Assembly (NCBI GenBank): GCA_903875045.1
Contig: CAIQUS010000161.1
Coordinates: forward strand, 1-57,186
Length of the DNA stretch: 57,186 bases
DNA from: an uncultured Bacteroidales bacterium
GTDB lineage: Bacteria > Bacteroidota > Bacteroidia > Bacteroidales > FEN-979
Direction: 5' to 3'
The translations under genes were made by a program, and so were the position numbers. The stretch's first letter is position 1. The number at the start of each line of letters is the position of its first letter. Below, in pieces: positions 15,601-35,398 of the stretch. The notes under the pieces were generated by a model, which was not told the origin of the DNA, did no database searches, and was given only the letters and a program-made list of their open reading frames with translations.

Positions 15601-17223
15601 AATTACCTGCCAATGTGGCCTCATGAAATGAAAAGATTGTGGCATTTTGGAGAGGAGCCATTAGAAGAAGCAGATACGATGCCATGTGCCATCTGGCAAT
15701 TGGATAATCTAAAACACCTGTATCTTATCATGGTTCAAGAACCGGGTCTGCCACCAGAACTTTGGACCAGGAAAGAACTGCAAAGTTTGACCCTGTCCCA
15801 ATGTTACCTTGATTCACTTTCAGGCGACATTGGAAAGCTGACGAACCTGACACGTCTTGAAATTTTTTCAAACAGTCCAGGCAGGGGCCTTATAACATTA
15901 CCGACTGAGATCGGAGAGTTATCAAACCTGAATGAACTGGTTCTCGATAGAAACGCGATTATCAGGTTGCCGCATGAAATAGGGCAACTGACGAGGTTGA
16001 CAACCCTGTCGCTCATCGAGAATGCCCTGGACAGTCTGGTGCCAGAGATCGGAAATTTGAATAGCCTTGAACGTTTGAATTTAAAATATAACCGTTTAAC
16101 ATACCTGCCATCAGAAGTTGGAAAATTGACAAACCTGAAAGAACTGAACCTGAGCGGAAATTACCTGACAGAATTGCCCACGGAATTAGGTAAATTACAA
16201 AACCTGAAGGAACTAGATCTAACGTATAACAATCTGCAAAGCCTGCCTGTGGAAATTGGAAATATGTCAGCCCTCAGAAAGCTGAAACTGGGTTATAATG
16301 AATTTTCGGAATATGAAAAACAAAGAATCCTGGAATTATTACCTAATTGTGAAATCGACTTGACTGAGAAAGAAGAGAAGGTCGCAAATGAAAATGCAGG
16401 TGATTTAATCAAATCAAAATCTTATGCTGATAAAGATCTGGAAGATGTGGAAAAAATCAGAACTCTCTGGAAATCTGATCCATCGGAATATTCAGAACAG
16501 TTGGCGGCAGCGCTTTGTAAACTGGCCAGTTTTCAGATCTCAACGTACGACAAAATAAATGCTGAATCCAACTGTTCCGAAGCCTTATCTCTGTACCGGG
16601 AATTGGCAAAAACCAACCCCGACCGCTATACACCCATGGTGGCAGCAACGCTCGACAGTCTTGCAGATATTCAGTTATGGTATGGTAAACCATCAGCCGA
16701 TTCAACTTGTCTGGAAGCTTTGATCATTCGTAGAAGCCTGGAACAAATTAACCCCGAAAAATATACTTCAAGTGTGGCATATAGTCTCAGGAATCTGGCG
16801 AGGGCACGGTTTAAAACAAATCCTCAGGGTGCCATGGCAAATATTCAGGAGGCGACTGATATTTACAAAGAACTGGTGAAGACCAAAAAGGATTTAAATG
16901 GACAATTGGCAAAGTGCTATGCCAATCTGGCTTATTATACCATTTTTGATCAGAAGTACAGGGAAGCTGAAAACTATGCCCGGCTTGCCATTAAAACAGA
17001 TCCAACATTAAAAACCGTGTACATGAGCCTTGCTCCGATCTTGCTTTACCAGGGAAAATTTGATGAGGCCAAATCCATTTATCTTGAATACAAGGACCAG
17101 GAAATTCCCAAATACAAGTATGTTAAGTATATCGATGGATTTCTGTTGGATTTCGACAGGTTCGAAAAAGCCGGTATCACCCACCCGGATGTAGCGAAAA
17201 TCCGCGAACTGCTGAAGAACTAA
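12676..17223 (+). CDS. Exported leucine-rich-repeat giant with WG and TPR parts
   Basis: The 1515-residue protein has a signal peptide (ending TISLAQ near residue 27), a helical region and coiled coil to about 135, and a WG-type repeat near 172-225 (YGFIDPEGNTVIDFKYEE). About 40 leucine-rich repeats of 23 residues follow from about 232 to 1220, and TPR-like helices run to the end. The LRR consensus is LxxLxLxxNxLxxLPxEIGxLxNL, the bacterial SDS22/LPxxI-type class. Every second or third repeat carries EFWNLKNL in place of EIGKL, a sign of growth by duplication of multi-repeat blocks. One degenerate stretch near 970-1030 breaks the register. Such repeats usually bind proteins. The four-base overlap with the nSTAND gene argues that this is its sensing or binding partner, placed outside the inner membrane. 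No sorting domain is seen at the C-terminus. Confidence 0.85.
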   Translation: MMKLLKHLHFCLLLIAGLFPATISLAQCDLKRYQELIKEGDAYLIRQEPDYKQAMNAYSAAMTACKDKMPEVQKKIVGLFEKVNQLKTKAEKSEQKALAQQLRTDSALTVAENEKQNAFQEKLRADSALHIAESIVHQFYFYDDKFALAVKKKHEYIDIKQCQVCMATNNLYGFIDPEGNTVIDFKYEEAFPFDMETGFAKVKLNNQYYLIDTTGTREYLLCDDPEKLNNFTVALDLRNRGLKSIPEKIYKYPQIKILLLSGNELEQLPPELTCFSDSLIYMDVSKNNMVALSPDIGKFKNLQVLKLSNNRIRLLPPETGSLSNLEELDLTVNELVDFPPEIGKLKKLMVFKSGYNHLTSVPSEIGELNSLREMNLYNNQISSLPVEFWNLLNLKFLSLENNEISSLPPESGKLKNLSYLGLSNNKIRSLPHDISNLINLKKLKIDFNQFEEFPPEIWNFKNLEGLNASGNQIIRIPGNISELTNLSGLFIGQNKIDSLPREFWTLKNLNEFNAAGNRIKSLSAKIGQLENLTYLDLSENNLLSLPPEVWNLKKLSSLKLNGNFLTNLPADIGKLSDLELLAIRNNLLPTIPSEIGKLKKLTVLYLDTNRFYTIPNEIWKLSGLNTLGLSGNQITILPAAIGHLTKLTALYLQNNQISSLPPEIRNLKELTDLRLANNRLTEFPAEFWNIKNLNFLDISNNMISSIPGELGNLIKLNHLYMDSNQISHVPLEFWNLKNLTHLGFADNRFSQLPDEIGKLTQLKTIDFSGNHLKKLPPGFGHLINLNEISLGNNQIDSLPPEFWSLKYLTELGLEQNRLSSIPPGIKGLGNLTYLNLEENKLTVLPQEMWTLKNLKYLVLNDNQLDVLTSDIGNLASLTSLRVSSNKLKRIPSGIGMLTKLVSLDVSSNEIDSLPEETGMLKDLEFLDISDNKFKSLPQTIRNLKNLTTMFVHENRLGPLPQEFGNLKRIESLAIDNYLPMWPHEMKRLWHFGEEPLEEADTMPCAIWQLDNLKHLYLIMVQEPGLPPELWTRKELQSLTLSQCYLDSLSGDIGKLTNLTRLEIFSNSPGRGLITLPTEIGELSNLNELVLDRNAIIRLPHEIGQLTRLTTLSLIENALDSLVPEIGNLNSLERLNLKYNRLTYLPSEVGKLTNLKELNLSGNYLTELPTELGKLQNLKELDLTYNNLQSLPVEIGNMSALRKLKLGYNEFSEYEKQRILELLPNCEIDLTEKEEKVANENAGDLIKSKSYADKDLEDVEKIRTLWKSDPSEYSEQLAAALCKLASFQISTYDKINAESNCSEALSLYRELAKTNPDRYTPMVAATLDSLADIQLWYGKPSADSTCLEALIIRRSLEQINPEKYTSSVAYSLRNLARARFKTNPQGAMANIQEATDIYKELVKTKKDLNGQLAKCYANLAYYTIFDQKYREAENYARLAIKTDPTLKTVYMSLAPILLYQGKFDEAKSIYLEYKDQEIPKYKYVKYIDGFLLDFDRFEKAGITHPDVAKIRELLKN

Positions 17224-18737: not shown

Positions 18738-19199
18738 ATGGGTATAAAAAAGCCGGAAATAATCTCAAGGAGAAACTTTTTTAAATCACTTGTAGGTGAA
18801 ATAATTATCAATTATGATGAAGCCAAAGGAATTACGAATGTTCCCTTGAACAGGTTGAATGAATTGCCGGAAGAGATGATCAGAGAAATCATTCCCGTAT
18901 TGTTTGATGACCCTAGGTGGAGAATCCAGGATGGGGAGCTCTTTCGCTTCAACGATAAAGAGAATAAATATGAATTGTATCAGAAACTAACCGAACATGA
19001 GGCATACATTGTAAGTCAGTTCGATCGGAACAAAACCTTGTTTGTGATCAGCATGTACCTGGCGGATGTCATGAAGATCGAATTGCCGGATGCTTTGGCA
19101 GAGGTTAAAGACTTGTTTTTTCAATGGGTTTCGCTTCTGATCTGTCACCCCATACAGCAGTATGATTTTGATAAAATTGTCACCCGTGAAAGCAACTGA
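18738..19199 (+). CDS. Possible PqqD-like / peptide-binding protein of the radical SAM island
   Basis: The 153-residue protein starts MGIKKPEIISRRNFFKSL. The SRRNFFK stretch looks like a Tat motif, but the following segment (VGEIIINYDEAKG) is not hydrophobic enough for a normal signal. The C-terminal 75 residues (EAYIVSQFDRNKTLFVISMY, then a helix ending EVKDLFFQWVSLL) recall the layout of PqqD-like winged-helix domains, the recognition elements that hand peptides to radical SAM enzymes. This match is weak and made by eye. The ATG at 18738 is chosen because GGGAAAG lies eight bases upstream; a TTG at 18702 is also in frame. It is the first gene of the island, 54 bases before a radical SAM/SPASM enzyme. 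Confidence 0.5.
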   Translation: MGIKKPEIISRRNFFKSLVGEIIINYDEAKGITNVPLNRLNELPEEMIREIIPVLFDDPRWRIQDGELFRFNDKENKYELYQKLTEHEAYIVSQFDRNKTLFVISMYLADVMKIELPDALAEVKDLFFQWVSLLICHPIQQYDFDKIVTRESN

Positions 19200-19253
19200 T
19201 TCATGATAATCCATTGGTGATGCTTCAATAGGAATGTAATTAAGATCAAAACG

Positions 19254-20624
19254 ATGAATGAAAAAACAAAAATATTTTCCATCCCGGTCTTAGATAAGTA
19301 CATCCTCTATGCGCCTTTGAAACAACTGGCGATGGTCGTCAACAATGCTTTACTGACACGTGTGGCGAAGCAACTGGATTTCCCTGAAGAACGAATTGAT
19401 GAAGATAGCGAACTATTCCTTTTATTAAAAAACATGGGCCTTTTTGATCCCGACCCGGTCTTGTTCTCAGGGTGCAACTGTATTCAGCCCTTTCGCCCTT
19501 CACAGGTCATTCTGATGCTTACCACCGGTTGCAACCTTGCCTGCACCTATTGTTATGCTGCCAGGGATAAAAGCAGACCAGTTTTCATAAAATGGCCGGT
19601 CGCAAAAAAAGCAATTGATATCGCATTTGAAAATTCAAGGAGTGTAAAGGGGGGGGCATTTTCTTTGAGCTTTCATGGTGGAGGCGAACCCACCCTTGCA
19701 CGGTCCCTTTTTTTTCAAACAATTGAATATGCCAGGTCGCTTGATCCGAATTGCCGGATTGCTGTTACAACCAATGCCGTATGGGATTCTGATTTTCGTG
19801 ATCGCGCATTGGACTTGCTCAATGAAATCAGCATCTCCCTGGATGGAAATGAATTAACCCAGAATCGACAGCGACCCGATAAGCATGGGCGGGGAACCTT
19901 CTTAGCCGTGATGGAGACCATCGCTGAAATTGAAAAACGGTCTCTGAATTATGGGATCCGGGTGACGTGTACGAAGGAGAGTCTTTCGGAATTATCAGGC
20001 AATGTGAAATTTCTTTGTGAGAATACTACCTGTCGGACATTCCAGGTTGAACCTGTTTATAACCAGGGACGTGCTGAAGGCAAAGGGATGACCATTGATG
20101 ACGTAAGCTCCTTTGTTGAAGCCTTTATGGATGCTTATTATCTGGCAAATTCAAAAGGAAAAAACCTCTACTATTCAGGCGCCCGCCCCCATGTCAGAAC
20201 GTTGACTTTCTGCAGGGCAACTTCCGATGTGCTGATAGTGACAGCCAATGGTGAGCTAACTGCATGTTATGAGGTTTTTGACAGAAGCCATGTTCTTTCT
20301 GATGATTTTATCATTGGTAAAATTGATTTGGAAAAAGGAATCATACTGACACCGGGGAAACGCGAAGCGCTTTTCGGGAAAATTGAAGAAAACAGAGCAC
20401 GATGCGAAGGATGCTTTTGTTATTTCCATTGCGCAGGTGATTGTCCTCCCAAAGCCTTCATTGCAAACCTGCATGATGATGAATTCCGCTGTTCAGTCGC
20501 CAGGGAAATCACCAAAGAACTGATCCTTGAACGGATTGCCTCGAGTAACGGAGTTTGGCAGGGAGGACTAAGTAACCGGATCGGACAATCGGTTTACCAA
20601 ACAATTGAATCGAAAAAAAAATAA
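19254..20624 (+). CDS. Radical SAM/SPASM peptide maturase 1
   Basis: The [4Fe-4S] cluster motif that binds S-adenosylmethionine is CNLACTYC with C93, C97 and C100, followed by HGGGEPT near 141-147 and SISLDG near 200. The C-terminal SPASM region, which carries auxiliary clusters, includes CEGCFCYFHCAGDCPP and a later FRCSV cysteine. An N-terminal extension of about 85 residues (IPVLDKYILYAP) is shared in style with the other two SPASM enzymes of this island and may help bind the substrate. SPASM enzymes modify proteins and peptides, for example in PQQ, mycofactocin, sactipeptide and sulfatase maturation. The gene ends 27 bases before the first Tat beta-propeller gene, so that protein is the natural substrate candidate. 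Confidence 0.9.
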   Translation: MNEKTKIFSIPVLDKYILYAPLKQLAMVVNNALLTRVAKQLDFPEERIDEDSELFLLLKNMGLFDPDPVLFSGCNCIQPFRPSQVILMLTTGCNLACTYCYAARDKSRPVFIKWPVAKKAIDIAFENSRSVKGGAFSLSFHGGGEPTLARSLFFQTIEYARSLDPNCRIAVTTNAVWDSDFRDRALDLLNEISISLDGNELTQNRQRPDKHGRGTFLAVMETIAEIEKRSLNYGIRVTCTKESLSELSGNVKFLCENTTCRTFQVEPVYNQGRAEGKGMTIDDVSSFVEAFMDAYYLANSKGKNLYYSGARPHVRTLTFCRATSDVLIVTANGELTACYEVFDRSHVLSDDFIIGKIDLEKGIILTPGKREALFGKIEENRARCEGCFCYFHCAGDCPPKAFIANLHDDEFRCSVAREITKELILERIASSNGVWQGGLSNRIGQSVYQTIESKKK

Positions 20625-20651
20625 ATTGAAACAAAAACCAAAGAATATCTT

Positions 20652-21905
20652 ATGAAAAAGGAAAAGCATAACGACCGGTTGAAAGATCAGCTTTCTGAAT
20701 CTGAGGAGAATCCTGAGGTTTATGTATTCAAGTCGGAGGAGGCACCAAACGGGATCACCAGGAGAGAATTCCTGGCCAGGTCCCTGGCAATGCCGGCTGC
20801 AATTTCATTAGGAGCAGCGGCAGCCCTGGCATCATCTGGTTGCAAAAAGGATACGCTGTCAGATTTTAAGAGTCTCCACCTGATGCAGCATCAGGGAAGC
20901 GTAAATTGCCTTGCCATCAGCCCGGACGGGACAATCCTTGCCTCCGGAAGCTCTGACAAGACCATCAAGCTTTGGGAACTTCCAGCCGGAAGGTTGCTGA
21001 ATACGTTGGAGGGGCACAGCAGTGACATAGTTTCATTGGCAATAAATCCGAACGGGACACTCCTTGTCTCAGCAGAGCGCAATGGAAAGATAAAATTTTG
21101 GAATCTGCCCGGAGGATCACTGGTGAAGACCATTTCAGGTGAATTTTCAAATATTTACAACCTGGGAGTCAGTCCGGATGGCCAGGTACTGATTGTAGGA
21201 GGGCACCAGCCATCGATCAAGATTTTCAGCATGCCTGACGGGAATTATATGAACTTCATTGAAATGCCGGCTTCCAATACTTACAGTTGTTTGGCGATTT
21301 CAAAGGATAGTCAGCAAATAGCGGTTGGAACCGATGAAGGGAAGATCCTTTTCTATAGCCTGCCAGGAGGAGAGTTGTTAACCGGTTCTATGAATCCAAG
21401 TACCTCAAAGATTCTTGAACTTACATTTAGCCCGGATGGTAAAATGATTGCAGTAGGCAGCCTTTATCACATCAATATTTACCAGTTTCCCGAGACCACG
21501 GGTTTAGGGAGTTTTGAAGGCAATTTGAATGATATCAATTCGCTTATTTTCAGCCCGGATGGAAGCACGGTTTATACAACAAACAGACGTGACCTGGACC
21601 ATTATGGTTTTCCTGACATGAAAATACGAATTCGAAATGTCCCTGACGGAGCGGTATCGAAGGTCATACAGGTATATTCAGAGTTTGAATCGTTTATAAA
21701 TGACCTGGCACTAAGTCCGGATGGAACGATTCTCGCTGCAGGCCTCGACGATAAAACGATCAGGTTGTGGAGCCTTCCCTCTGGCAATGCCATTACTACC
21801 CCATGTACGTGCGACCAGGTTTGTACGTGCGATACAGTGTGCTCCAGCGTCTCCGTGTGTACTTGCGACGGGAATTCAGGAGGAACTTATTGGTACCCAA
21901 GTTGA
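20652..21905 (+). CDS. Tat-exported WD40-like beta-propeller with Cys-X-Cys tail (short tail)
   Basis: The 417-residue protein begins with a charged leader (MKKEKHNDRLKDQ) and then a Tat signal, TRREFLARSL with a hydrophobic stretch to SSGCKKD near residue 73, where the cysteine could be lipidated. Residues about 80-380 form WD40-like blades with the pattern SPDGTILASGSSDKTIKLWELP. From residue 385 the tail reads as hexapeptides, CTCDQ-V-CTCDT-V-CSSVS-V-CTCDG, with seven cysteines, and the end is GTYWYPS. The propeller itself is almost free of cysteine. Tat substrates are exported folded, so modification of the tail would happen first in the cytoplasm. It is flanked by a radical SAM gene and a paralogue with a longer tail. 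The tail is the probable target of the island's enzymes (inference). Confidence 0.85.
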   Translation: MKKEKHNDRLKDQLSESEENPEVYVFKSEEAPNGITRREFLARSLAMPAAISLGAAAALASSGCKKDTLSDFKSLHLMQHQGSVNCLAISPDGTILASGSSDKTIKLWELPAGRLLNTLEGHSSDIVSLAINPNGTLLVSAERNGKIKFWNLPGGSLVKTISGEFSNIYNLGVSPDGQVLIVGGHQPSIKIFSMPDGNYMNFIEMPASNTYSCLAISKDSQQIAVGTDEGKILFYSLPGGELLTGSMNPSTSKILELTFSPDGKMIAVGSLYHINIYQFPETTGLGSFEGNLNDINSLIFSPDGSTVYTTNRRDLDHYGFPDMKIRIRNVPDGAVSKVIQVYSEFESFINDLALSPDGTILAAGLDDKTIRLWSLPSGNAITTPCTCDQVCTCDTVCSSVSVCTCDGNSGGTYWYPS

Positions 21906-21961
21906 GAGGTCTGATGATCATGAAAACGAGGTGTTGATTTTTGAATAATAAAAGATGCTGC

Positions 21962-23332
21962 ATGAGAAAAGAGAAACACAATGACCGGTTGAAAACCCAG
22001 CCTACCGAGCAAAATGAAAAACCTGAGGTTTATATCTTTAAAACAGATGAAAAACCGCAAGGAATGAGCAGGAGAGATTTTTTAGCCTCATCCATGGTTA
22101 TACCTGCTTCATTGGGCGCTATTGCGGTTATTGGTGCAGCTGGCTGCGCAAAAGATGAAACTCCTGATCCGGTACCTCCGGTAAATCCCAATCAAACGCG
22201 ATCCGATTACAAATCCTTTCGCAAAATGGCGCATAATAAACCGGTTACTTCCCTGGTTTTTAATGCACAAAGCAATGTTCTAATTTCAGGAGGGCTGGAC
22301 GGGAAAATAAAATTCTGGACTGTGCCGGGCGGATACATGTTGAAATCGCTTGATGCGGATTCGGCAGGTGTCCGGTCACTCGCTATCAATCCAACAGGAA
22401 CTATCGTGGTTTCCGGCGGGGATGACCATATTGCAAAGCTCTGGAACCTCCCTGGCATGACCCAGATAAAAACATTGCCTGCAGAAGCTGATGAAATACA
22501 TGCACTTGCAATAAATTCGGATGGGAGTTTGCTGACTTCCGGAACTAAAGGAGGCAGAATATCCATTAACAGCCTACCGGCAGGAGAGCTGATTAAAACG
22601 ATTGACAATACAATTCCATGGTTGAAATCGTTGGCTTTTTATTTACATGGATCTTTACTGGTTACAGCCGGGGATCTGGCAGAAATTAAAATCTGGAAAG
22701 TAAATGATGGGTCGCTTTATAAAACGCTTTCCGGACATACAGCTAATGTTAATGCAATTTCTTTCAGTCAGAATGGAGCACATCTTGCTTCCGGCAGTGA
22801 TGATGGGACAATCAAAATATGGAGATTTGCCGACGGAGCGCTTCTAAATAGCATTCCTGGTGAGGCTTCCAATATTTTCTCGGTATGCATAAGTCCGGAT
22901 AAGAAAATAGTGGTATCCGGGAATGGCGATTCAACCGTTAAATTGTGGAATTTTGACGACGGTGAATTACTATTCACCCTGAAGGGGCACACCCAGCGTG
23001 TTAATTCAGTTGCAATCAGCCCTGACGGGAAATTATTGGCTTCGGGAGGTGACGATAAAACGATCTTGCTATGGAGCCTTCCCTCCGGAGATTTGATCGC
23101 GAACGTCTGTTCTTGTGATACGGTATGTACGTGCAACACGGTTTCCACAACGGGAGTATGTAACTGTGATTCGGTAGTACCTTGTTCGTGCGACAGTATA
23201 TGTACTTGTGATAATGTATGCACATGCAATTTAGTTTGTTCATGTGTTTCAGATTGTTCCTGCGTTGCTGTCTGCACGTGTAATTCAGCTTGTTCCTGCG
23301 ATGGAAATACCCATTACTGGTACCCGACCTGA
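21962..23332 (+). CDS. Tat-exported WD40-like beta-propeller with long Cys-X-Cys repeat tail
   Basis: This 456-residue paralogue of the preceding gene has the same leader (MRKEKHNDRLKTQ), the same PEVYIFK block, a Tat motif SRRDFLASS and GAAGCAKD, a plausible lipobox. WD40-like blades run from about 90 to 378 (ASGSDDGTIKIWRFADG). From residue 383 the tail holds ten Cys-X-Cys motifs, twenty cysteines in all, in a roughly six-residue rhythm of the form V-C-[ST]-C-[DN]-x, for example VCTCNS and ICTCDN. The end is DGNTHYWYPT, matching the YWYP end of the paralogue. The start is the ATG at 21962; a TTG at 21941 is less likely because the two paralogues align from the later position. The cysteines occur as CxC, not as heme-binding CxxCH. 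The radical SAM gene 2 starts 34 bases downstream. Confidence 0.85.
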   Translation: MRKEKHNDRLKTQPTEQNEKPEVYIFKTDEKPQGMSRRDFLASSMVIPASLGAIAVIGAAGCAKDETPDPVPPVNPNQTRSDYKSFRKMAHNKPVTSLVFNAQSNVLISGGLDGKIKFWTVPGGYMLKSLDADSAGVRSLAINPTGTIVVSGGDDHIAKLWNLPGMTQIKTLPAEADEIHALAINSDGSLLTSGTKGGRISINSLPAGELIKTIDNTIPWLKSLAFYLHGSLLVTAGDLAEIKIWKVNDGSLYKTLSGHTANVNAISFSQNGAHLASGSDDGTIKIWRFADGALLNSIPGEASNIFSVCISPDKKIVVSGNGDSTVKLWNFDDGELLFTLKGHTQRVNSVAISPDGKLLASGGDDKTILLWSLPSGDLIANVCSCDTVCTCNTVSTTGVCNCDSVVPCSCDSICTCDNVCTCNLVCSCVSDCSCVAVCTCNSACSCDGNTHYWYPT

Positions 23333-23366
23333 TCAATAAAGGAGGATTGCTTCAATCATTTACTGA

Positions 23367-24740
23367 ATGAATATTTTACAAAACACATATTTGCTCCCGG
23401 TTAACGGGAAATATTTAGTTTATTCTCCTTTTGCAAGTACCAGGGCACTGGTCAATAAATCAGCGGCCCTGGAGATTAAAAAAGGGATGAAGGCGGGGGC
23501 TGCTTTTTCAGACAACCAGGGGCAGGTGGAGAATCTTTTGATCCATCTCAATGAAAAAAAAGTTCTTCCGGAAAAACGAAAAGGAGAAATCAACCCTTTA
23601 TTTCTGGGGATCATCCCTACGCGGTCCTGTAACGGAGCCTGCAACTATTGTGATTTCGGGGCAGACAAAGCCCCGGATCTTTACATGCCATTGAAGAGGG
23701 CCGTAAGCGCCGTAGACTGGTACTCCGGAATCGTCAGGAAAAATAAACACAAACTTCTGGAAATTCACTTTTTCGGCGGCGAACCCATGATGGCCATGGA
23801 CGTGGTTGAGACGGTTGTTCATCGCGCACGATTCAATGCACAAAACGCAAATCTGAAAACTGTTTTTGAAATTTCTACAAACGGGCAGTATCACCGGGAT
23901 AAGGCTGAATTTCTTGGCTCTTATTTTACAACAGTCATCCTTTCCCTGGATGGATTTGAACCGGTTCAGAATGCTCACAGACCATTGAAAAACGGAAGGG
24001 GGAGCTTTCAGGATGCAAGGAGAACTGCTGAAATAATCAGTGGTTCCTCTGCCCGGCTCGGCCTCAGGGCTTGTGTAAGCGATAAGAATGTTGACCAGAT
24101 GGGGAAAATTGCGGAGTGGTTCTGCCGTGAATTCAAGCCCTTTTCCATAAATTTTGAAGCATTAAGGGAAACGTCAGAGACATCAATAAAGAATTTATAT
24201 CCTCCGGATCCGGTTAAATTTGCAGTCAGCCTGATCAAGGCCAGGAGAATTTGTGCTTCTTACGGCATCCCACTGGTGTATGCAACTGACATATCCATGA
24301 ATCCTGTATATTCATCCTGCCCGGTTGGTAAAGATACTGCCATTGTGTCACCTGACGGAAGGATCAGCAATTGTTATCTGATGCCGGAGAAATGGAAAGA
24401 GATTGGGATGGACCTTGATTTCGGTTTCATAAGAGATGACAATGTAGTTGTCATTGAAAAGGGAAACTTGAAAACCATTCGGAACGATATAACAAAAAAA
24501 CCAAGATGTTCAAGATGTTTCTGCAGGTGGAGCTGCGCAGGAGGATGTCATGTGGGCAACACGTTTCCGGGAGCGGGAAATGATTACAACGATTATTGCC
24601 GTCAAACGCGTATGATATCCTTATCCACCCTCCTGGATTCGCTTGGTATGGATGAAATGACAAATGAAATTCTGGAAGAGACAGCCAGGCTGGAATCTTT
24701 TGCAAATCAATCGAGCGACCTGCTTATGGATTTTATGTGA
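23367..24740 (+). CDS. Radical SAM/SPASM peptide maturase 2
   Basis: The cluster motif is CNGACNYC (C88, C92, C95), followed by FFGGEP near 135-140 and VILSLDG near 190. The SPASM region has CSRCFCRWSCAGGCHVGN near 390-405 and a downstream cysteine in NDYCRQT. The N-terminal 80 residues (LLPVNGKYLVYSPFASTRALV) resemble the extension of enzyme 1. It lies just after the long-tailed propeller and four bases before a PqqD-like gene, the usual order for a maturase with its recognition protein. The reaction is unknown. Cysteine-directed chemistry such as thioether bridging is attractive, because the neighbouring substrate candidates are so rich in cysteine. Confidence 0.9.
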   Translation: MNILQNTYLLPVNGKYLVYSPFASTRALVNKSAALEIKKGMKAGAAFSDNQGQVENLLIHLNEKKVLPEKRKGEINPLFLGIIPTRSCNGACNYCDFGADKAPDLYMPLKRAVSAVDWYSGIVRKNKHKLLEIHFFGGEPMMAMDVVETVVHRARFNAQNANLKTVFEISTNGQYHRDKAEFLGSYFTTVILSLDGFEPVQNAHRPLKNGRGSFQDARRTAEIISGSSARLGLRACVSDKNVDQMGKIAEWFCREFKPFSINFEALRETSETSIKNLYPPDPVKFAVSLIKARRICASYGIPLVYATDISMNPVYSSCPVGKDTAIVSPDGRISNCYLMPEKWKEIGMDLDFGFIRDDNVVVIEKGNLKTIRNDITKKPRCSRCFCRWSCAGGCHVGNTFPGAGNDYNDYCRQTRMISLSTLLDSLGMDEMTNEILEETARLESFANQSSDLLMDFM

Positions 24741-24744
24741 TGCT

Positions 24745-25014
24745 ATGAACCCGAAAAAAATGACCGTTTTGCCGGAAATAGCCTGGGTTGTGGAAAATCA
24801 AGGCATTCTTGTTATAAACACCGATACTTCGATCGTAAAATTACTGGATTATCCGGATGCGGCTGTATGGTCAGTCATCCTGAGATATGGTTTCAGGCCA
24901 AAAGCCGTAGAAATCCTTTCGGCTATTATAGATTCGACAGCAAAGAATACCCGGGAAAAAATTGAAAACACGTTAATAAACTGGGAAAAAGAAGGATTCA
25001 TAACCGTTTCATAG
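24745..25014 (+). CDS. PqqD-like RiPP recognition element protein
   Basis: This 89-residue protein has the size and layout of PqqD: an N-terminal beta part (VLPEIAWVVENQGILVIN), then AVWSVILRYGF in place of the usual IW-x-LLDG, and a last helix IENTLINWEKEGFI ending in the typical hydrophobic-Gly-Phe-Ile. PqqD-type proteins bind the leader of a substrate and present it to a radical SAM enzyme. The ATG at 24745 begins four bases after the radical SAM gene 2 stop, and the following gene starts four bases after its own stop, so the three are translated as one unit. The charged leader KEKHNDRLK shared by the two propellers is the obvious binding candidate (inference). Confidence 0.7.
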   Translation: MNPKKMTVLPEIAWVVENQGILVINTDTSIVKLLDYPDAAVWSVILRYGFRPKAVEILSAIIDSTAKNTREKIENTLINWEKEGFITVS

Positions 25015-25018
25015 TTCC

Positions 25019-27298
25019 ATGTCGAACCTTTCATTAACAACGAGCTGTAATAATAATTGTTCCTACTGTTTTGCAGGAGATTCACGAAGCCAGGGAGTCG
25101 TTATGGATAATTTCATGACTTCCGGGGTTTTTCATTCGGCACTTGATTACCTGGAACGGTCCGGTATAAAGCAATTAAGGATTCTGGGCGGGGAGCCGAC
25201 CATTCATCCCCGCTTTACGGAGTTTGTTGATGTCGGAATAAAGAGGGGGTTTACCTTGCTGATTTTCTCGAATGGACTGATGCCGGAAAAGGTGCTGAAT
25301 CATCTTCAGTCGCTGGATCCGCGGCAATTGACAGTGTTGTTGAACACCATCCATCCGGTGGAAAATAATCCGGCAGGTGTGTGTAAGCAACAGGATACGA
25401 TGAGAATTCTCAGTAAACGGGTTAAACCGGGCATCAATCTCTTCAGGAGGGGACAAACTTTTGAATACCTGATCCATGATATATTAAGGTATGACCTTAT
25501 CAGGGAAATCAGAATGGGCCTGGCTCATCCTCTTTTGAGCCGCAGGAATGTGTACCTGCATCCTGAATATTACAGGGAAACCGGAATCAGGATTTCTGAC
25601 TTCGTTGAGAAGGCTGCGCATGAAGGAATAAAAGTCGGGTTTGATTGCGGATTTGTGCCCTGCATGTTTCAGCAAAATTCATTTCAGAAAGGGGTTGAGC
25701 CATGGACAACCCCCGGCAAAAGCTGTAACCCGATCCTGGATTTACTGCCAGACGGACGCTTCATATCATGTTATCCCCTGAACGATTTTTATCAGTTTCC
25801 ATTGCTTCCGCAGATTACCTCAAAACAACTTGTGGAGATATTTGAACATAAACTCGCTCCATTTTCACATTTCGGAATTTTCCCCCATTGCAGGGAGTGT
25901 TCATTATTTAGAACCCGGTGTTCGGGAGGTTGTGTTTCTCAAAAGATCATCAGGCTTAACAGGGAAAAGCGGGAGCGTATCCGGGGCACTATTCCTGACC
26001 GGTCAGAAGTCCTCAGAAAAGCGGAAATTCTGAAATTATCAGAAAATCTTGATATTGGTTCAAGAATTCCCCCGAAGCCGTACAGACCGGAAAACGGAAG
26101 AGAGATTTTAAATGAGCCGGAAATAATAGCACATCTGAAGAAAGGACAAATCACTAAGGAGGTCTCAATCTATCTCCATATCCCGTTTTGCAGGACAAAA
26201 TGTGCTTTCTGCGACCTCTACTCCTTCCCATTGAACCACCATAACGATCACCTGAAAACCCCTTATGTTGAAGCAATGATCCGGGAAATAGAATTCTGGG
26301 GGGAATTAATGGGGAAACAATGCACTCATGTCACAACCATTCATTTTGGCGGCGGAAGTCCGATGGTTCTCCCCCATGAACTTTTATCGAAGATTCTGGC
26401 AACATTAAAATCGTATTTCCCAATCGATAAAACGACTGAAATTGCCCTGGAAATCACAACCGATGAGATCAGCGAAGAAAACATCAGGTTTTTCGGGAAC
26501 GAAAATATATCCAGGATTCACACAGGCATTCAAACCCTCAGCAAGGATATTAGAAAAATAATCGGAAGGAATGACCATATTGAAGGTGTAGGGGAGAAGA
26601 TCAAAGAACTGAAAAAAAATCATAAGGTAATTTCTGCTGATCTTTTATTCGGGCTTCCAAATCAATCGCCCGACGGATTCCTTTCCGATATTCATCACCT
26701 GATCGGACTGGGCTTTGATGGTTTTGCCCTGTATGAATTTCAGCCTTCAAAGTTCATCAAAAGGAAGAAATTGACGGATCGTTTTTTTCTACCGAACAAG
26801 TACGAAAATTTCATCATGCTTCAGAACGCGAAAGAGTTGCTGAACGGAAAGAAATTTCACAATGTTTTCTATAATCATTATGGGAATGAACGTGACAAAA
26901 ACCTCTATTTTACTTTTCTTCAAAGAAAGGAAGATTGTATTTCTATTGGTGCAATCAGCGACGGAGTTGTCGGCGGGATCAACTTCAGGCATAATTCATT
27001 CAACAAGTACATGAATTCAGTGAACCAGCATAGAATCGGACTGGATTACGGATACAGGGAGTCGGCAGAAAGGAGCATGAAAACGCAGTTCGAAGTGGCC
27101 CTGATGTCGACAAAAATACCGGAATCCCTTTTAGCCGGATTTTCCGAAATCTATGGAGACCGCTTCGAAAAGATCTTCAAAGGATGGAACCGTAACGGCA
27201 TGATAAATGAAAGCAGCGGGAAATTCGAACTGAGTGCCGGCGGATGCTATTTTATTTCGACCATGATTGAAGAGGTGAGGAATTTAAAACAGGGTTAA
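25019..27298 (+). CDS. Two-headed radical SAM protein (SPASM-like half plus HemN-like half)
   Basis: The 759-residue protein contains two complete radical SAM cores. The first starts at once with CNNNCSYC (C10, C14, C17) and LGGEPT near 60, and ends with a cysteine cluster CRECSLFRTRCSGGC near 293-307, a short SPASM-like or twitch-like end. The second starts YLHIPFCRTKCAFCD (C391, C395, C398), with FGGGSP and GIQTL, the pattern of HemN/HemW and class C radical SAM methyltransferases, including a HemN-type C-terminal region. A fusion of a peptide-maturase type half with a HemN-like half is unusual. One reading is that it performs two steps on one substrate, for example cross-linking and methylation. 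It lacks the N-terminal extension of its neighbours, whose role may be filled by the PqqD-like protein encoded just upstream. Confidence 0.85.
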   Translation: MSNLSLTTSCNNNCSYCFAGDSRSQGVVMDNFMTSGVFHSALDYLERSGIKQLRILGGEPTIHPRFTEFVDVGIKRGFTLLIFSNGLMPEKVLNHLQSLDPRQLTVLLNTIHPVENNPAGVCKQQDTMRILSKRVKPGINLFRRGQTFEYLIHDILRYDLIREIRMGLAHPLLSRRNVYLHPEYYRETGIRISDFVEKAAHEGIKVGFDCGFVPCMFQQNSFQKGVEPWTTPGKSCNPILDLLPDGRFISCYPLNDFYQFPLLPQITSKQLVEIFEHKLAPFSHFGIFPHCRECSLFRTRCSGGCVSQKIIRLNREKRERIRGTIPDRSEVLRKAEILKLSENLDIGSRIPPKPYRPENGREILNEPEIIAHLKKGQITKEVSIYLHIPFCRTKCAFCDLYSFPLNHHNDHLKTPYVEAMIREIEFWGELMGKQCTHVTTIHFGGGSPMVLPHELLSKILATLKSYFPIDKTTEIALEITTDEISEENIRFFGNENISRIHTGIQTLSKDIRKIIGRNDHIEGVGEKIKELKKNHKVISADLLFGLPNQSPDGFLSDIHHLIGLGFDGFALYEFQPSKFIKRKKLTDRFFLPNKYENFIMLQNAKELLNGKKFHNVFYNHYGNERDKNLYFTFLQRKEDCISIGAISDGVVGGINFRHNSFNKYMNSVNQHRIGLDYGYRESAERSMKTQFEVALMSTKIPESLLAGFSEIYGDRFEKIFKGWNRNGMINESSGKFELSAGGCYFISTMIEEVRNLKQG

Positions 27299-27332
27299 CA
27301 TCATTTAATGATTAAGTAATAAACAAGAACCG

Positions 27333-28259
27333 GTGGCGGAAAAGATTCACGTGATTCCCTATATTGATCAGCCAGGACCTTTCTGGGATAATCTGTTTAA
27401 TAACTATTCGTCTTTTATCAAAGAGGTCTATTTTCCTGTGCAAAGCGATTTTATCGGGACGGGCAGACCCGTTCAACCCGCCAAATATCTGAATGACTTT
27501 CTCAGAAACGATGCAATCCCAAAATCAATTCTGATCAATCCTGTAATTTTGCCGCGACCTGTGAATGAAATCAAGGAAGTCATCCTGGAATATTTAACAG
27601 ACATGGTTGAAAATTACAATATTGTGGGTGTTTCTGTTGTAAATCCATCCCTTGCCGGAATAATCAAATCGGAATTTCCATCCCTTGAGATTACCGCATC
27701 AACGCTGATGGATATTTCTACCGTGCAGCAGGTTATTATGCTAAGGGCCAATGTTGATGCGATCGTTCCCTCAGGAAGAATCATCAGGGATATAGGGCAG
27801 ATGCAGGAGATCCGTGCAAGTTTTCATGGCAAGATCAGGTTACTGGTCAATGAATCATGTCTTCCGTCATGTTTGTACAGAACGCAGCATTTTTATGAAA
27901 TGTCTGATTTTTCAAACAAACATCCTGAGTCGCTTTGCATTGATCAGTTGGCCAGGTTTCCATGGATGCGGTTGACAGGCTCCTGGATTCTGCCGCAGCA
28001 TTTACACTTTTTTGACGGATTGTATGATGAGATCAAACTGGCAGGCAGGGTGACCCTTAGCAACCCAGCTGACTATCTGGAAATAATGGAGAACTATTTC
28101 CTGAAACGGACCATCGGCATTAAGAAAATAGGGGGAGGCCCTGCTTCAATACCATACGGGATCAATATTACAAATGAATTTTATGAACATACTCTTCACT
28201 GCAATAAAAATTGTGATGAATGTTCAATCTGCATGGATTACTGGATTGCCAATACATGA
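27333..28259 (+). CDS. U32-like TIM-barrel protein with cysteine motifs
   Basis: The 308-residue protein starts at a GTG. It looks like a TIM barrel of the peptidase U32 / UbiU-UbiV type, with the central motif LLVNESCLPSCLYRTQHFY (C176, C180) that resembles the NExCxxxCPxR cluster site of such proteins. A further cysteine is at 202. The last residues form a separate cluster, CNKNCDECSIC (C290, C294, C297, C300). Known U32-family proteins bind a [4Fe-4S] cluster and act in oxygen-independent hydroxylation. Here it could be an auxiliary enzyme for the tail or an electron carrier. Its stop overlaps the next radical SAM gene by four bases (ATGA), so it belongs to the same operon. The fold call is moderate. 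Confidence 0.6.
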   Translation: MAEKIHVIPYIDQPGPFWDNLFNNYSSFIKEVYFPVQSDFIGTGRPVQPAKYLNDFLRNDAIPKSILINPVILPRPVNEIKEVILEYLTDMVENYNIVGVSVVNPSLAGIIKSEFPSLEITASTLMDISTVQQVIMLRANVDAIVPSGRIIRDIGQMQEIRASFHGKIRLLVNESCLPSCLYRTQHFYEMSDFSNKHPESLCIDQLARFPWMRLTGSWILPQHLHFFDGLYDEIKLAGRVTLSNPADYLEIMENYFLKRTIGIKKIGGGPASIPYGINITNEFYEHTLHCNKNCDECSICMDYWIANT

Positions 28260-29563
28260 TTCAACAGGATCATACTTATAATGACCGGGCCCATCCCGAC
28301 CTCCCGATTTATGCATTAAATTGGGAACAACGATATTTTTTTTACACACCGGGCCTCATAGCCCTTGTCGAAAATGAAGAGTTCAATGGTCTCCGGGATG
28401 CCGTTCTCAAAAATGATCCTTCAGGGTTAAAGGAGGAGGCTGCAGGGCTTTACCTTCACTTAATTGATATTGCATCGAAACAAAAGGAAAGGTATTTAAG
28501 CCGGCGAACGAAAGAATACCTTCCCGAATGTTTGACTATCAGTATCAGCAATGATTGCAATTTAGCCTGCGATTATTGTTATACACGTAGCCATAAAGGG
28601 TCCAGCGTGCATCCTGTTGTTGATCTGAATGTTGTTGAGGCATCTGCAAAGTTGGTAGCTGAAAACTGCAAACAACTCGGAAAACCTTTTTCTGTCGTTT
28701 TTCACGGGGGTGGAGAGCCTACCTTTCATTGGAATTATTTTACCGGATTGTATTTCCTTACCAGAAGGCTGGCCGGTTCAATGAAAATTCCTTTCTTCAG
28801 TTATATTTCAACAAATGGTTTTATAAGCAGGGAAAAGGCAAAATGGTTGTCAGATCATTTCAGTCTGATTGGTGTCTCAATTGATGGGCCTCCGAAAATT
28901 CAGCATCAAAACAGGAAAACATTAAGCGGGGGACAAACCTCACCATTGGTCATTGATGCCATTAAATCCATCGCCAACCGGAAAACGCAGGTGGAGGTCA
29001 GGAGTACTATCACATCCGGGAACATGTTTTCGCAAAATGAAATCGTTGAGTACTTTATCAAGGAATTATCTGTCAGGAAGATACGGTTTGAGCCGAAATA
29101 CGGCGGATCAGATCCGGAGTTCAAGGAAACTGATTCGGATGAATTTGCCAAAAATTTTATTCTTGCTCAAAAAACTGCCAGTCGCCTGGGAGGGGAGTTG
29201 CAGTTTTCAGGTGTCAGGCTGGATGAAATCCACGGAGTGTATTGTGATGTCTTAAGGAACAATTTGCGCATCGGCCCTGACGGCATTTCTGTGAATTGTT
29301 TCTTTTCCCCGCTGGCGGTAAAGGATAATATCACAGGCAAATTTGATGAAGTCCATAACAGGTTTGTTCTGGATGAAAATAACATAAAGAACATAGTTAA
29401 AAAGGCTTTTTTAGCACCATTGAAATGCCGGAATTGTTTCCTGGAGTACCATTGTTCAAAAGGGTGTCCCGACTTTTGCTGGAACGATTCAACAAAAATG
29501 GAGCTTGTTGGTTTCCGCTGTGCTGTACACCGTAAAATTGCGCTGAGCACCATTTTGTCCTGA
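28256..29563 (+). CDS. Radical SAM/SPASM peptide maturase 3
   Basis: The cluster motif is CNLACDYC (C101, C105, C108), with FHGGGEPTF near 154-162 and LIGVSIDG further on. The SPASM end has CRNCFLEYHCSKGCPDFC and a final FRCAVHRK. The N-terminal 90 residues (LPIYALNWEQRYFFYTPGLI) again resemble those of enzymes 1 and 2. The ATG at 28256 is chosen because it overlaps the stop of the preceding gene (ATGA); an earlier in-frame ATG at 28220 would add 12 residues inside that gene. It is the last gene of the island. Its stop codon lies inside the left end of an inverted-repeat element, so the original downstream context may have been changed. Confidence 0.9.
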   Translation: MIQQDHTYNDRAHPDLPIYALNWEQRYFFYTPGLIALVENEEFNGLRDAVLKNDPSGLKEEAAGLYLHLIDIASKQKERYLSRRTKEYLPECLTISISNDCNLACDYCYTRSHKGSSVHPVVDLNVVEASAKLVAENCKQLGKPFSVVFHGGGEPTFHWNYFTGLYFLTRRLAGSMKIPFFSYISTNGFISREKAKWLSDHFSLIGVSIDGPPKIQHQNRKTLSGGQTSPLVIDAIKSIANRKTQVEVRSTITSGNMFSQNEIVEYFIKELSVRKIRFEPKYGGSDPEFKETDSDEFAKNFILAQKTASRLGGELQFSGVRLDEIHGVYCDVLRNNLRIGPDGISVNCFFSPLAVKDNITGKFDEVHNRFVLDENNIKNIVKKAFLAPLKCRNCFLEYHCSKGCPDFCWNDSTKMELVGFRCAVHRKIALSTILS

Positions 29564-33133: not shown

Positions 33134-35398
33134 ATGGGTAACATGAAAGCGATGTACCGTGTTGACGGTATGTCCTGCGCCTCCTGCGCCGGGAGTATTC
33201 AAACCATGCTGGCAGCTCAGGAAGGGGTGAATTCAGCCAGTGTCAACCTGGCATCAGAACAGGTGATGGTGGATTATGACCCATCGGTTATTACCCTGGA
33301 ACAAATCATAAAAACAGTTGATGAACTGGGTTTTAAAATCATTACACGTGATTTATCGCTTGAAGAAGCGCAAGACCTCTCGGCGGTAAGGTTAAAAAGG
33401 CTTCGGGCCAATACGATACTGTCGGCCTTGTTTTCCATTCCGGTTGTGCTGATTGCCATGGTTTTTCATCATATCCAATACGGAAATATCATCATGATGG
33501 CGCTCACCATCCCGGTGCTGGCATGGTTTGGACGCGAATTTTTTGTCATTGCATGGAAACGGATGCTTCATTTTTCGGCCAACATGGATACGCTGGTAGC
33601 GCTTGGTACCGGCAGTGCATTTATTTTCAGTGCATTCAATACCATTTATCCCGGATATCTTTTGAACCACGGATTTGAACCGCATGTCTATTTTGAAGCG
33701 GCCACTGTGATCATTACGTTCATATTGCTGGGACGTTTTTTTGAAGAAAAAGCAAAACAGAAAACCTCCGAAGCCATTAAAAAACTGATGGGGTTGGGGG
33801 TGAAAACCGCCCTGGTTATCCGCAATGGCGTAGAAAAAGAGATGCTTATCTCGAAAATAGTAAAAGGGGATATCCTGGTGATCCGGCCCGGGGAGAAGAT
33901 TCCCACCGACGGGAGGGTGGTTGAAGGGCATAGTTCCATTGATGAGAGCATGATTACCGGAGAGTCGATGCCGGTGAATAAATGGCCGGGCGATACCGTG
34001 ATCGGAGCTACCATCAACCAGACCGGCAGCATGAAAGTAGTGGCTGAAAAAGTTGGAAATGATACCTTGCTGGCACAGATTATCAGGCTGGTCCAGGAAG
34101 CGCAGGGCAGCAAAGCACCTATCCAGAAACTGGCTGATAAAATTGCCGCGGTGTTTGTACCGGTTGTGATGGCCATTGCAGTGCTCACCTTCATTGCCTG
34201 GATGGTATGGCAACCCGCAACCGGGGCGCCGTTGGCATTCGTTGCTGCTGTAACCGTGCTTGTTGTTGCATGTCCATGTGCACTGGGACTGGCAACACCA
34301 ACTGCCCTGATGGTTGGGTTGGGCAAGGCTGCACAGTCGGGAATCCTGGTGAAAGATGCGCAAAGCCTGGAAATGTTTTGCAAAACCACGGCCATTGTTC
34401 TCGATAAAACCGGAACAGTTACCATCGGAAGGCCGCAGGTAACAGATGTGTTTCTCGATCCGGAATCAGATCGCGGGCAGGAACAGGCTGGCAGGGATAT
34501 TCAGCGGGCGATTGTTGCCATTGAATCAATGTCGGAGCATCCTTTTGCTGAAGCCCTGGTAAATTTTTTCACCGAAAAAAAAGGTAAAAATCAAGGTGAA
34601 TTGCAGCCGCAACTTCCCGGGGAAAGTATGGTTTCAGGTTTTGAAAGCATAACCGGTAAAGGAGTTTCGGCCACGTTTGCCGGGGATCTATATCACATCG
34701 GAAGCAGGAGCTATATCACAGGAAGTGGTTGTAAAGTGCCGGAAGTATTCGTGCAGGATGAGATCAAACTGAAGCAACAATCAAAGTCGGTCGTTTACGT
34801 ATCGTGCAACAATATCGTAGCAGCCATGGTTGCATTCGCCGACACAGTGAAGCCGGGTTCTGCAAAAGCAATCTCCAAACTTCGGGAGATGGGCTTGCAG
34901 GTTCATCTTTTATCGGGCGACAGTGTGGCGATTACCTCACACATTGCGGCCCTTGCCGGCATTGAATTTTTCAAGGCCGAAGCCACCCCGGTTGAAAAAT
35001 CAGACTATGTGAGGCATTTGAAGGAGCAGGGGTTTGTCGTGGCCATGGTGGGCGACGGGATCAATGATTCGCCGGCACTGGCCGTTGCCGATATCGGCAT
35101 TGCCATGGGAACCGGAACAGATATTGCCATTGAAAGCGCCCAGATTACCCTGATAAAAGGGGATTTGGGAAAACTGGTCACGGCGCTGAAACTTTCATCG
35201 GCAACCGTAAAAACCATCCGGCAGAACCTTTTCTGGGCATTTTTTTACAACATCATCACCATTCCTATCGCGGCAGGGATCCTGTATCCCTTTACCGGTT
35301 TTATGCTGAACCCCATGCTGGCAGGTGCAGCCATGGCTTTTAGTTCGGTGTCGGTGGTGAGCAACAGCTTGCGGCTGAGGTCCAAAAGATACGATTGA
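33134..35398 (+). CDS. copA: Copper-exporting P1B-type ATPase
   Basis: One N-terminal heavy-metal-associated domain carries MSCASC with C15 and C18. The membrane part holds CPC at residues 380-382, the transport site of P1B-1 copper(I) pumps. DKTGT with the phosphorylated D424 and the hinge [11 protein letters not shown] from residue 640 complete the catalytic set, with TGES near 275 as the actuator loop. The 754-residue length and single HMA domain are usual for Bacteroidota CopA. The start could also be the ATG at 33143. A well-placed -7 box and a heptanucleotide repeat lie upstream. There is no CueR, CsoR or chaperone gene next to it, so its regulator is not in this window. It should export Cu(I) across the inner membrane. 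Confidence 0.92.

What the first reader, a model, noticed from the sequence alone, without database searches (positions are those of the whole stretch)
18738..29563. Radical SAM island built around two Tat-exported propellers with Cys-X-Cys tails
Seen directly: nine same-strand genes with short gaps or ATGA overlaps, holding three SPASM enzymes, one protein with two radical SAM cores, a PqqD-like protein, a second possible one, a U32-like protein with two cysteine clusters, and two Tat-signal beta-propellers with repeated CxC tails. Established: SPASM enzymes with PqqD-like partners modify cysteine-containing peptides (sactipeptides, ranthipeptides), and QhpD places Cys-to-Asp/Glu thioether bridges in the small subunit of a periplasmic amine dehydrogenase that also has a beta-propeller subunit. 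Inference: the tails are modified in the cytoplasm and exported as part of folded propellers, a RiPP-like system in which the product stays attached to a large protein. I know of no described family with this combination.
Basis: partly seen in the sequence, partly recalled or inferred. Interest (0 to 1): 0.92.

Follow-up and report, generated by a model that had tools for sequence, protein, structure and literature searches.

The report
Enzyme-matured portable cysteine tail system
Bacteria of several phyla carry a gene cluster, not described as far as I could find, in which up to six radical enzyme units appear to modify a cysteine-rich tail on otherwise unrelated exported proteins; what the modification is and what it is for are still unknown.

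Summary
In detail: nine same-strand genes (18738-29563) encode three SPASM radical SAM enzymes, a two-core radical SAM protein, two PqqD-like proteins, a U32-fold protein and two twin-arginine WD40 proteins with CxC tails. The system exists elsewhere. Orthologues of the first SPASM enzyme (B) occur in 18 of 681 genomes of three other phyla; 15 of these encode a CxC-rich protein, 14 in the same cluster. At E <= 1e-3 a tail profile matched 13 of 19 B-positive and 0 of 58 B-negative genomes. Tat-type substrates share two parts: an N-terminal motif at fixed spacing before the twin arginine (17 of 17 intact N-termini), and the tail. Bodies differ (WD40, SH3, another). Candidatus Chlorohelix has two substrates alike only in leader and tail, and a paralogue of one body lacking both. 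In clusters with extra enzymes 11 of 12 tails end Y[WY][YH]P; in minimal clusters 0 of 8. Best reading: a RiPP-like maturation system for a portable protein tail, leader and Tat signal being one unit. The chemistry is inferred, not shown.

The parts
18738..19199 (+). A: PqqD-like protein with an N-terminal SRRNFF motif but no hydrophobic signal region; proposed leader-binding partner
   Evidence: orthologues in 9 of 9 full loci and in none of the fetched flanks of 6 minimal loci; RR invariant in 8 of 8 aligned; PqqD is the Pfam family that more members match than any other, 2 of 8, weakly
19254..20624 (+). B: SPASM radical SAM enzyme, through which all loci but one were found; proposed CxC-tail maturase
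   Evidence: nearest named families PapB, SCIFF maturase, DynA, none near its cut-off
20652..21905 (+). WD1: leader + Tat-type signal + WD40 propeller + CxC tail ending YWYPS (substrate)
20712..20771 (+). WD1 leader motif PEVYVFKSEEAPNGITRREF (residues 21-40)
   Evidence: same motif and spacing in 17 of 17 intact Tat-type substrate N-termini
21804..21902 (+). WD1 CxC/YWYP tail
21962..23332 (+). WD2: leader + Tat-type signal + WD40 propeller + longer CxC tail ending YWYPT (substrate)
23102..23329 (+). WD2 CxC/YWYP tail, period six, mostly C[ST]C[DN]x[VI]
23367..24740 (+). rS2: second SPASM radical SAM enzyme
   Evidence: clade of 6 rows, support 100/100; found in full loci only
24745..25014 (+). 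D: small PqqD-like protein just before, or overlapping, the dblN unit in 8 of 8 loci where both were found; proposed leader-binding partner of it
25019..26017 (+). dblN: N-terminal radical SAM unit of the two-core protein (boundary approximate)
   Evidence: separate gene in L042, L045, L185; fused to U32 in L143, L145, L163
26018..27298 (+). dblC: C-terminal ChuW/HemN-like radical SAM unit of the two-core protein (boundary approximate)
   Evidence: separate gene in L042 and, cut by the contig end, L158; fused to rS3 in L143, L145, L163
27333..28259 (+). U32-fold protein with seven cysteines conserved in the 4 sequences aligned
28256..29563 (+). rS3: third SPASM radical SAM enzyme, ATGA overlap with U32
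   Evidence: clade of 7 rows, support 100/100

Best explanation
The island is a maturation system for a portable tail. (1) Tat-type substrates start with a leader whose motif, roughly P-x-[VI]-[FY]-x-[VF], lies at a fixed distance before the twin arginine, so leader and Tat signal are one unit (shown by sequence). (2) The PqqD-like proteins A and D, and perhaps the N-terminal domains of the SPASM enzymes, hold the leader (inferred). (3) B modifies the CxC segment, most likely with thioether links from Cys thiols to neighbouring residues, because its nearest named families include PapB and the SCIFF maturase and, for one orthologue, QhpD (inferred; this chemistry about 50%). (5) The folded, modified protein is exported by Tat, and signal peptidase removes leader and signal together, leaving the matured tail on the body (inferred). 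What the tail does outside the cytoplasm is open; a metal-binding or redox site is my first guess.
For: B at E <= 1e-60 in 9 of 247, 5 of 221 and 4 of 213 genomes of the phyla of G726 (Bryobacterales MAG), G725 (Chloroflexi MAG) and G724 (Lentisphaerae MAG), these three included. Of the 18, 14 have a CxC-rich protein in the same cluster and 1 on another contig (G763). Tail profile at E <= 1e-3: 13 of 19 B-positive, 0 of 58 B-negative genomes. Leader motif: 38 hits in 5814 ORFs of 177 partly overlapping loci, all in 13 CxC proteins; mean 0.6 in 5 shuffles. The motif was fixed before the Chlorohelix plasmid was fetched, and both its substrates fit. Chlorohelix: the two substrates match only in leader (83% of 29 aa) and tail (38% of 66 aa); one body is 70% identical over 267 aa to a nearby protein without the motif, without RR in its first 60 residues and without CxC. 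Three different fusions join the extra enzymes: dblN-dblC here, dblN-U32 and rS3-dblC in L143, L145 and L163. YWYP-type end in 11 of 11 Tat-type substrates of 9 full loci and 0 of 7 of 6 minimal loci; with the small peptides L147 and L164 counted in, 11 of 12 and 0 of 8. Tat profile TIGR01409 above its cut-off in 6 of the 10 substrate N-termini tested, of 17.
Against: No mass or activity data: modification is not shown. Three B-like genomes (G1011, G1062, G1078; 237-300 bits) show no CxC protein in the fetched flanks; they lie outside the main B clade. Two more (G788, G1324) have small CxC peptides without the leader motif or a Tat-type signal, and G788 (L147) has a dblN-like gene (284 bits) although its tail does not end Y[WY][YH]P. 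The window's own tails lack the LPCGSPIPPGAVCxCNCV segment and are not matched by the tail profile. The profile was built from tails of 10 of the 13 matched genomes, so only G742, G763 and G1377 are independent positives. The leader motif was drawn from the proteins it was then counted in, Chlorohelix apart. Loci are related by descent, so the Fisher values overstate independence. PqqD likeness is weak: profile comparison with two PqqD proteins of the own genome was inconclusive, as was the model of D (pLDDT 44.5). The Tat profile is under its cut-off in WD1 and gave no match in WD2. The extra enzymes were not searched for elsewhere in the minimal genomes.
Confidence: 0.82

Rival explanations
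1. The tail is an unmodified metal-binding (Cu, Zn or Fe-S) cysteine tail, and the radical SAM enzymes make a separate small cofactor that the exported proteins bind.
For: CxC repeats resemble metal-thiolate tails (recalled). A P-type ATPase gene of copper type (recalled from its motifs) lies downstream at 33134-35398.
Against: A leader shared by carriers of unrelated bodies, and two PqqD-like proteins, point to peptide modification. B's nearest families are peptide maturases. Small CxC peptides stand beside divergent B enzymes.
Confidence: 0.15
2. An ordinary RiPP: the tail is modified and then cut off the carrier as a free bioactive peptide.
For: L147 and L164 have B-like enzymes next to CxC peptides in frames of 178 and 125 residues that look like RiPP precursors.
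Against: In the 17 intact Tat-type substrates the CxC part sits on a large body, and in L140 about 140 residues follow it. Among the nine window proteins the family scans showed no peptide exporter, and no protease apart from the U32 likeness.
Confidence: 0.12
3. The YWYP end becomes a protein-derived redox cofactor (a quinone or crosslinked Tyr/Trp), made without oxygen: SPASM enzymes crosslink, the U32-fold protein hydroxylates, the ChuW-like unit methylates. An anaerobic counterpart of the cysteine tryptophylquinone pathway.
For: YWYP ends go with the extra enzymes. The U32 proteins UbiU/UbiV are O2-independent hydroxylases (PMC6747719, passages). In the quinohemoprotein system QhpD makes Cys-Asp/Glu thioethers and QhpG dihydroxylates a Trp of the same leader-bearing subunit (PMC7876137, passages).
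Against: U32 was found in only 4 of 9 full loci, two of the other five being cut or split contigs. Its cysteines are spaced CX3CX21C...CX3CX2CX2C, not the recurrent CX6CX15CX3/4C of U32 families. No spectroscopy.
Confidence: 0.2
4. Chance neighbourhood: the propellers are unrelated to the enzymes.
For: The island's U32 gene was not found in 119 relatives or in 394 genomes of the phylum (some genomes in both), so in its own group the cluster is isolated.
Against: Same neighbourhood in several phyla, with unrelated bodies.
Confidence: 0.02

Closest known systems
QhpD/QhpC of quinohemoprotein amine dehydrogenase
   Same: A SPASM enzyme acts on a leader-bearing protein subunit in the cytoplasm before export and is encoded beside it (PMC7876137, passages). 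TIGR03906 is eighth among B's matches (71.9 bits) and first for the L145 orthologue (117 bits).
   Different: Cut-off 453 bits not reached. QhpC has a 28-residue leader cut by QhpE, then export by an ABC transporter; here the leader runs into a Tat-type signal and the bodies vary. The family scans of the nine window proteins showed no flavoprotein or subtilisin-like protease.
PapB ranthipeptide maturase
   Same: Best named match of B (116.8 bits) and second best of rS2 and rS3; repeated Cys units in the substrate; PapB tolerates Cys-Xn-Asp with n = 0-6 in vitro (PMC9413430, passages).
   Different: Cut-off 340 bits not reached. PapB's natural substrate has six CX3D/E motifs; the WD2 tail has none, and 4 of its 10 CxC units hold no Asp or Glu.
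SCIFF maturase and SCIFF peptide
   Same: 5wgg (CteB, name recalled) is B's nearest solved structure by sequence (E 1e-17).
   Different: TIGR03974 cut-off 425, B scores 89.3. SCIFF is a small peptide (recalled).
U32 hydroxylases UbiU/UbiV
   Same: U32 fold, conserved cysteines.
   Different: Different cysteine spacing; fused to a radical SAM unit in three loci.
ChuW/HutW radical SAM methyltransferase
   Same: Nearest model of dblC (211 bits) and of the rS3-fused unit in L143 (193 bits).
   Different: Cut-off 400 not reached; fused to other radical SAM units.

Membership tests
RiPP (radical SAM type) | Genetically encoded precursor with leader and modified region beside the modifying enzyme | tested here: met
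   Leader and tail conserved over unrelated bodies, same cluster
RiPP (radical SAM type) | Post-translational modification of the precursor | not testable with these tools
   Needs mass spectrometry
RiPP (radical SAM type) | PqqD/RRE leader-binding domain | tested here: inconclusive
   Weak Pfam PqqD matches in 2 of 6 D and 2 of 8 A proteins; searches did not support it
PapB family (NF047865) | Score above curated cut-off 340 | tested here: not met
   B 116.8, rS2 109.5, rS3 75.4
PapB family (NF047865) | CX3D/E crosslink motifs in the substrate | tested here: not met
   0 in the WD2 tail; but PapB accepts other spacings in vitro
QhpD family (TIGR03906) | Score above curated cut-off 453 | tested here: not met
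   B 71.9; L145 orthologue 117
SCIFF maturase (TIGR03974) | Score above curated cut-off 425 | tested here: not met
   B 89.3
Tat substrates | Twin-arginine signal at the N-terminus (TIGR01409 cut-off 16.7) | tested here: inconclusive
   6 of 10 N-termini above the cut-off; WD1 13.6, WD2 no match; RR in 17 of 17 intact N-termini
Peptidase U32 family | U32 fold | tested here: met
   Foldseek first hit 5d88, E 5.1e-9; model pLDDT 63.4; Pfam below its cut-off
Peptidase U32 family | CX6CX15CX3/4C-type cluster of four cysteines | tested here: not met
   C176, C180, C202, C290, C294, C297, C300 against PMC6747719, which also notes families without it
ChuW/HutW (TIGR04107) | Score above curated cut-off 400 | tested here: not met
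   211 bits

The most novel reading that the evidence does not exclude
The full clusters build, without oxygen, a protein-derived redox cofactor from the Y-[WY]-[YH]-P end next to a radical-SAM-crosslinked cysteine scaffold, and attach it as a portable module to any Tat-exported protein: an anaerobic, modular counterpart of tryptophylquinone cofactors, with a U32-fold protein as the hydroxylase.
Probability: 0.17. Interest if true: 0.96.

Novelty: new variant of a known kind. Interest (0 to 1): 0.87.

Why it matters
It would be a class of protein modification in which the modified part is a portable tail rather than a free peptide or one fixed subunit, and in which RiPP leader and Tat signal are one element, so that export itself can remove the leader. 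It would extend radical SAM peptide chemistry to large exported proteins in several phyla, including a named organism, Candidatus Chlorohelix allophototropha, whose genes are annotated only as radical SAM, WD40 and hypothetical proteins. The minimal clusters (one enzyme and its substrate) make the chemistry directly testable, and the extra enzymes paired with an aromatic end pose a clear second question.

Tried and rejected
Searches that gave nothing or little: the U32 protein in relatives and in the phylum (only the own genome in 120 and in 395); the WD2 tail as a single query (only itself in 120 genomes, and not even the sister tail, so low sensitivity); the leader in 61 genomes (own only, both copies); leader alignment against genome contigs (162 stretches, none related); the two-core protein in viral contigs (3 stretches, none related) and in 295 genomes of the order at E <= 1e-40 (own, plus a stand-alone relative of the N-half in G602, which lies in a different radical SAM trio); B in 247 genomes of the window's phylum at E <= 1e-40 (own only); the tail against viral contigs (87 stretches, none related) and phages (none).

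Considered and rejected: that the propeller is the modified part (bodies vary); that the CxC tail is a recent DNA duplication (codons differ); filing the system under PapB, SCIFF or QhpD (cut-offs not met). Rows left out of the first YWYP count: L147 and L164, small peptides without Tat-type signal; one search counts them in. Literature: ten searches of an open-access library; no title or start of abstract listed described this system. Subscription papers and preprints were not searched. Papers seen: passages of PMC9413430, PMC6747719 and PMC7876137; all others only as listings.
Full report
OBSERVATION. The nine genes exist at 18738-29563, on one strand, with gaps of 4 to 56 bases and one ATGA overlap. 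B, rS2 and rS3 are SPASM-type radical SAM enzymes (CX3CX2C plus CX2CX5CX3C; above the Pfam Radical_SAM cut-off), related to each other over most of their length at 23-25% identity. The 759-residue protein has two radical SAM cores (residues 10 and 391). The two WD40 proteins carry a twin arginine at residues 37-38 (WD1) and C-terminal tails with 7 and 20 cysteines, ending YWYPS and YWYPT. Their identity is uneven: 22 of 36 before the RR, 15 of 26 in the signal, 110 of 303 in the propeller, 22 of 31 in the tail. At the identical residues, 12 of 22 codons differ in the leader and 12 of 22 in the tail, which points to selection on the protein rather than recent copying.

FINDING THE FAMILY. Searches with the U32 protein, tail, leader, two-core protein or B among relatives and in the window's own phylum found only the window's own genome, apart from a stand-alone relative of the two-core protein's N-half in G602. 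Each of the three lies in a cluster with a CxC-tailed protein. A profile of the four B proteins then found B at E <= 1e-60 in 9 of 247, 5 of 221 and 4 of 213 genomes of the respective phyla, the three starting genomes included. I fetched the flanks. Of these 18 genomes, 14 have a CxC-rich protein in the same cluster, one (G763) has it on another contig next to D and dblN genes, and three (G1011, G1062, G1078) show none; these three are a separate branch of the tree.

CONTROL FROM THE SUBSTRATE SIDE. A profile of ten tails was run on 77 genomes: the 19 with B, the window's included, and 58 without it, the first listed from the same three phyla (20 of 238, 20 of 216 and 18 of 209). At E <= 1e-3 it matched 13 of 19 and 0 of 58. 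Ten of the 13 positive genomes supplied tails to the profile, so the independent positives are G742, G763 and G1377. B-positive genomes without a match: the window's own, G788 and G1324 (CxC proteins of another make), G1011, G1062 and G1078. In a separate collection, tblastn with one tail against 72,556 plasmids found one record, a plasmid of Candidatus Chlorohelix allophototropha. It carries, in order, rS2, D, dblN, a WD40 substrate, a second substrate, B and A, then an IS21 element. No rS3, dblC or U32 was found in the 18.7 kb fetched there or in the next 16 kb.

ANATOMY OF THE SUBSTRATE. I compared 18 Tat-type substrates. L158 is cut at its N-terminus; the other 17 all have [PT]-x-[VIL]-[FYV]-x-[VLIFAM]-x9-[STND]-RR at the same spacing. 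In 5814 ORFs of at least 100 residues from 177 partly overlapping loci the motif occurs 38 times, always in one of 13 CxC proteins, against a mean of 0.6 in 5 shuffles. The motif was drawn from these proteins, but it was fixed before the Chlorohelix record was fetched, and both Chlorohelix substrates fit. It is absent from the two small CxC peptides of L147 and L164. The middle of the protein is free: WD40 in most, a bacterial SH3 domain in L042, and an unrelated body in Chlorohelix. The two Chlorohelix substrates match each other only in the leader (29 residues, 83%, E 1e-12) and the tail (66 residues, 38%, E 2e-9); the second body is 70% identical over 267 residues to a protein about 5 kb away that has no leader motif, no RR in its first 60 residues and no CxC. 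This is a natural control: leader and tail go together. Outside the window the tail often begins LPCGSPIPPGAVCxCNCV, followed by CxC units; the window's tails lack that first segment.

TWO GRADES OF CLUSTER. Six loci have, in the fetched flanks, B and one or two substrates but none of the other enzymes (L041, L140, L142, L144, L146, L162). Nine have more of A, rS2, D, dblN, U32, rS3 and dblC (window, L042, L045, L143, L145, L158 on a cut contig, L163, G763 over two contigs, Chlorohelix). The extra enzymes are fused in three ways: dblN-dblC in the window, dblN-U32 and rS3-dblC in L143, L145 and L163; in L042 dblN and dblC are separate genes. Such exchange of partners ties them to one pathway. 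D stands just before or overlaps dblN in 8 of 8 loci where both were found. All 11 Tat-type substrates of the nine loci end Y-[WY]-[YH]-P-x; none of 7 in the six minimal loci does (Fisher 3e-5 by substrate, 2e-4 by locus). Two loci were left out of that count: L164, B with a small CxC peptide, and L147, B with a small CxC peptide and a dblN-like gene (284 bits) whose Tyr-rich tail does not end so. With them in, the counts are 11 of 12 and 0 of 8 (Fisher 7e-5); relatedness is not corrected in any of these. Hence B is likely to act on the CxC part and the others mainly on the aromatic end. The rows of rS2 (6) and rS3 (7) form groups with support 100/100, and 14 B proteins including the window's form one with 86/92; the B proteins of L147 and L164 fall outside it.

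THE ENZYMES. B scores best with PapB (116.8 bits), the SCIFF maturase (89.3) and DynA (83.4); QhpD scores 71.9. Its L145 orthologue scores best with QhpD (117). All lie far below the cut-offs of 340 to 453. PapB and QhpD make Cys-Asp/Glu thioethers (passages of PMC9413430 and PMC7876137), as does the SCIFF maturase a thioether by the model's name, which is why I favour thioether links. But the WD2 tail has no CX3D/E, and 4 of its 10 CxC units have no Asp or Glu, so the acceptor residue is unknown. A and D look like PqqD: it is the Pfam family that more members match than any other, though weakly; other tests gave no support. A has RR in 8 of 8 aligned sequences, without a hydrophobic stretch after it in the window's protein, perhaps as a mimic of the substrate leader. 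The U32 protein has the U32 fold by search of a middling model, but its cysteine spacing differs from known U32 families. dblC is nearest to ChuW/HutW.

MECHANISM AND LIMITS. Shown: constant leader plus Tat-type signal, constant tail, variable body, co-occurrence with B, two grades of cluster. Inferred: leader held by PqqD-like domains; tail modified in the cytoplasm; folded export by Tat; leader lost with the signal peptide; aromatic end modified by the second set. Not shown: any modification, any function. Small CxC peptides beside divergent B enzymes (L147, L164) and, on a Caballeronia plasmid, a protein with CxC pairs right after a twin-arginine stretch beside a B-like enzyme suggest that the tail system is one branch of a wider group.

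NOVELTY. I know of no described family with this combination, and the ten literature searches listed under Tried and rejected showed none. I file it as a new variant of radical SAM peptide maturation; it works like QhpD and ranthipeptide systems but fails their membership cut-offs.

Noticed in passing
L020 11407-15461; L022 3-5815 (viral contigs): Viral contigs with proteins made of many CxCNxRT-like cysteine repeats, on the same fetched stretch as a radical SAM gene: perhaps phage-encoded proteins modified in a similar way.
   Followed up: no
L187 7785-9769 (Caballeronia sp. NK8 plasmid, NZ_AP024325.1): B-like enzyme (295 bits) next to a small protein with a DRRTLL stretch followed soon by CSC, CAC and CVC; no features annotated there.
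   Followed up: partly
L185 5770-7638: The body of the second Chlorohelix substrate also exists as a separate protein without leader motif or CxC.
   Followed up: yes
L140 10718-13795: Substrate with many WD40 repeats in which the CxC part is followed by about 140 residues that look like an S74-type tail-fibre chaperone domain (recalled; not in the 25 Pfam rows shown).
   Followed up: no
L147 2626-6516 (G788): Beside the divergent B enzyme and its small CxC peptide: a dblN-like gene (284 bits) and a second, weaker one (54 bits); perhaps a related system on free peptides.
   Followed up: partly
L007 15108-18059 (G602): Another radical SAM group in a genome of the window's order: a dblN-like enzyme, a protein of unknown type and a radical SAM enzyme with SPASM-like cysteines (types read from the sequence).
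   Followed up: no
window 33134-35398: P-type ATPase with a GMSCASC motif and CPC, copper-type as recalled, about 3.6 kb downstream of the island; possibly of interest for a thiolate tail.
   Followed up: no
window 12676-17223: 1515-residue protein that reads as many leucine-rich repeats, upstream of the island.
   Followed up: no
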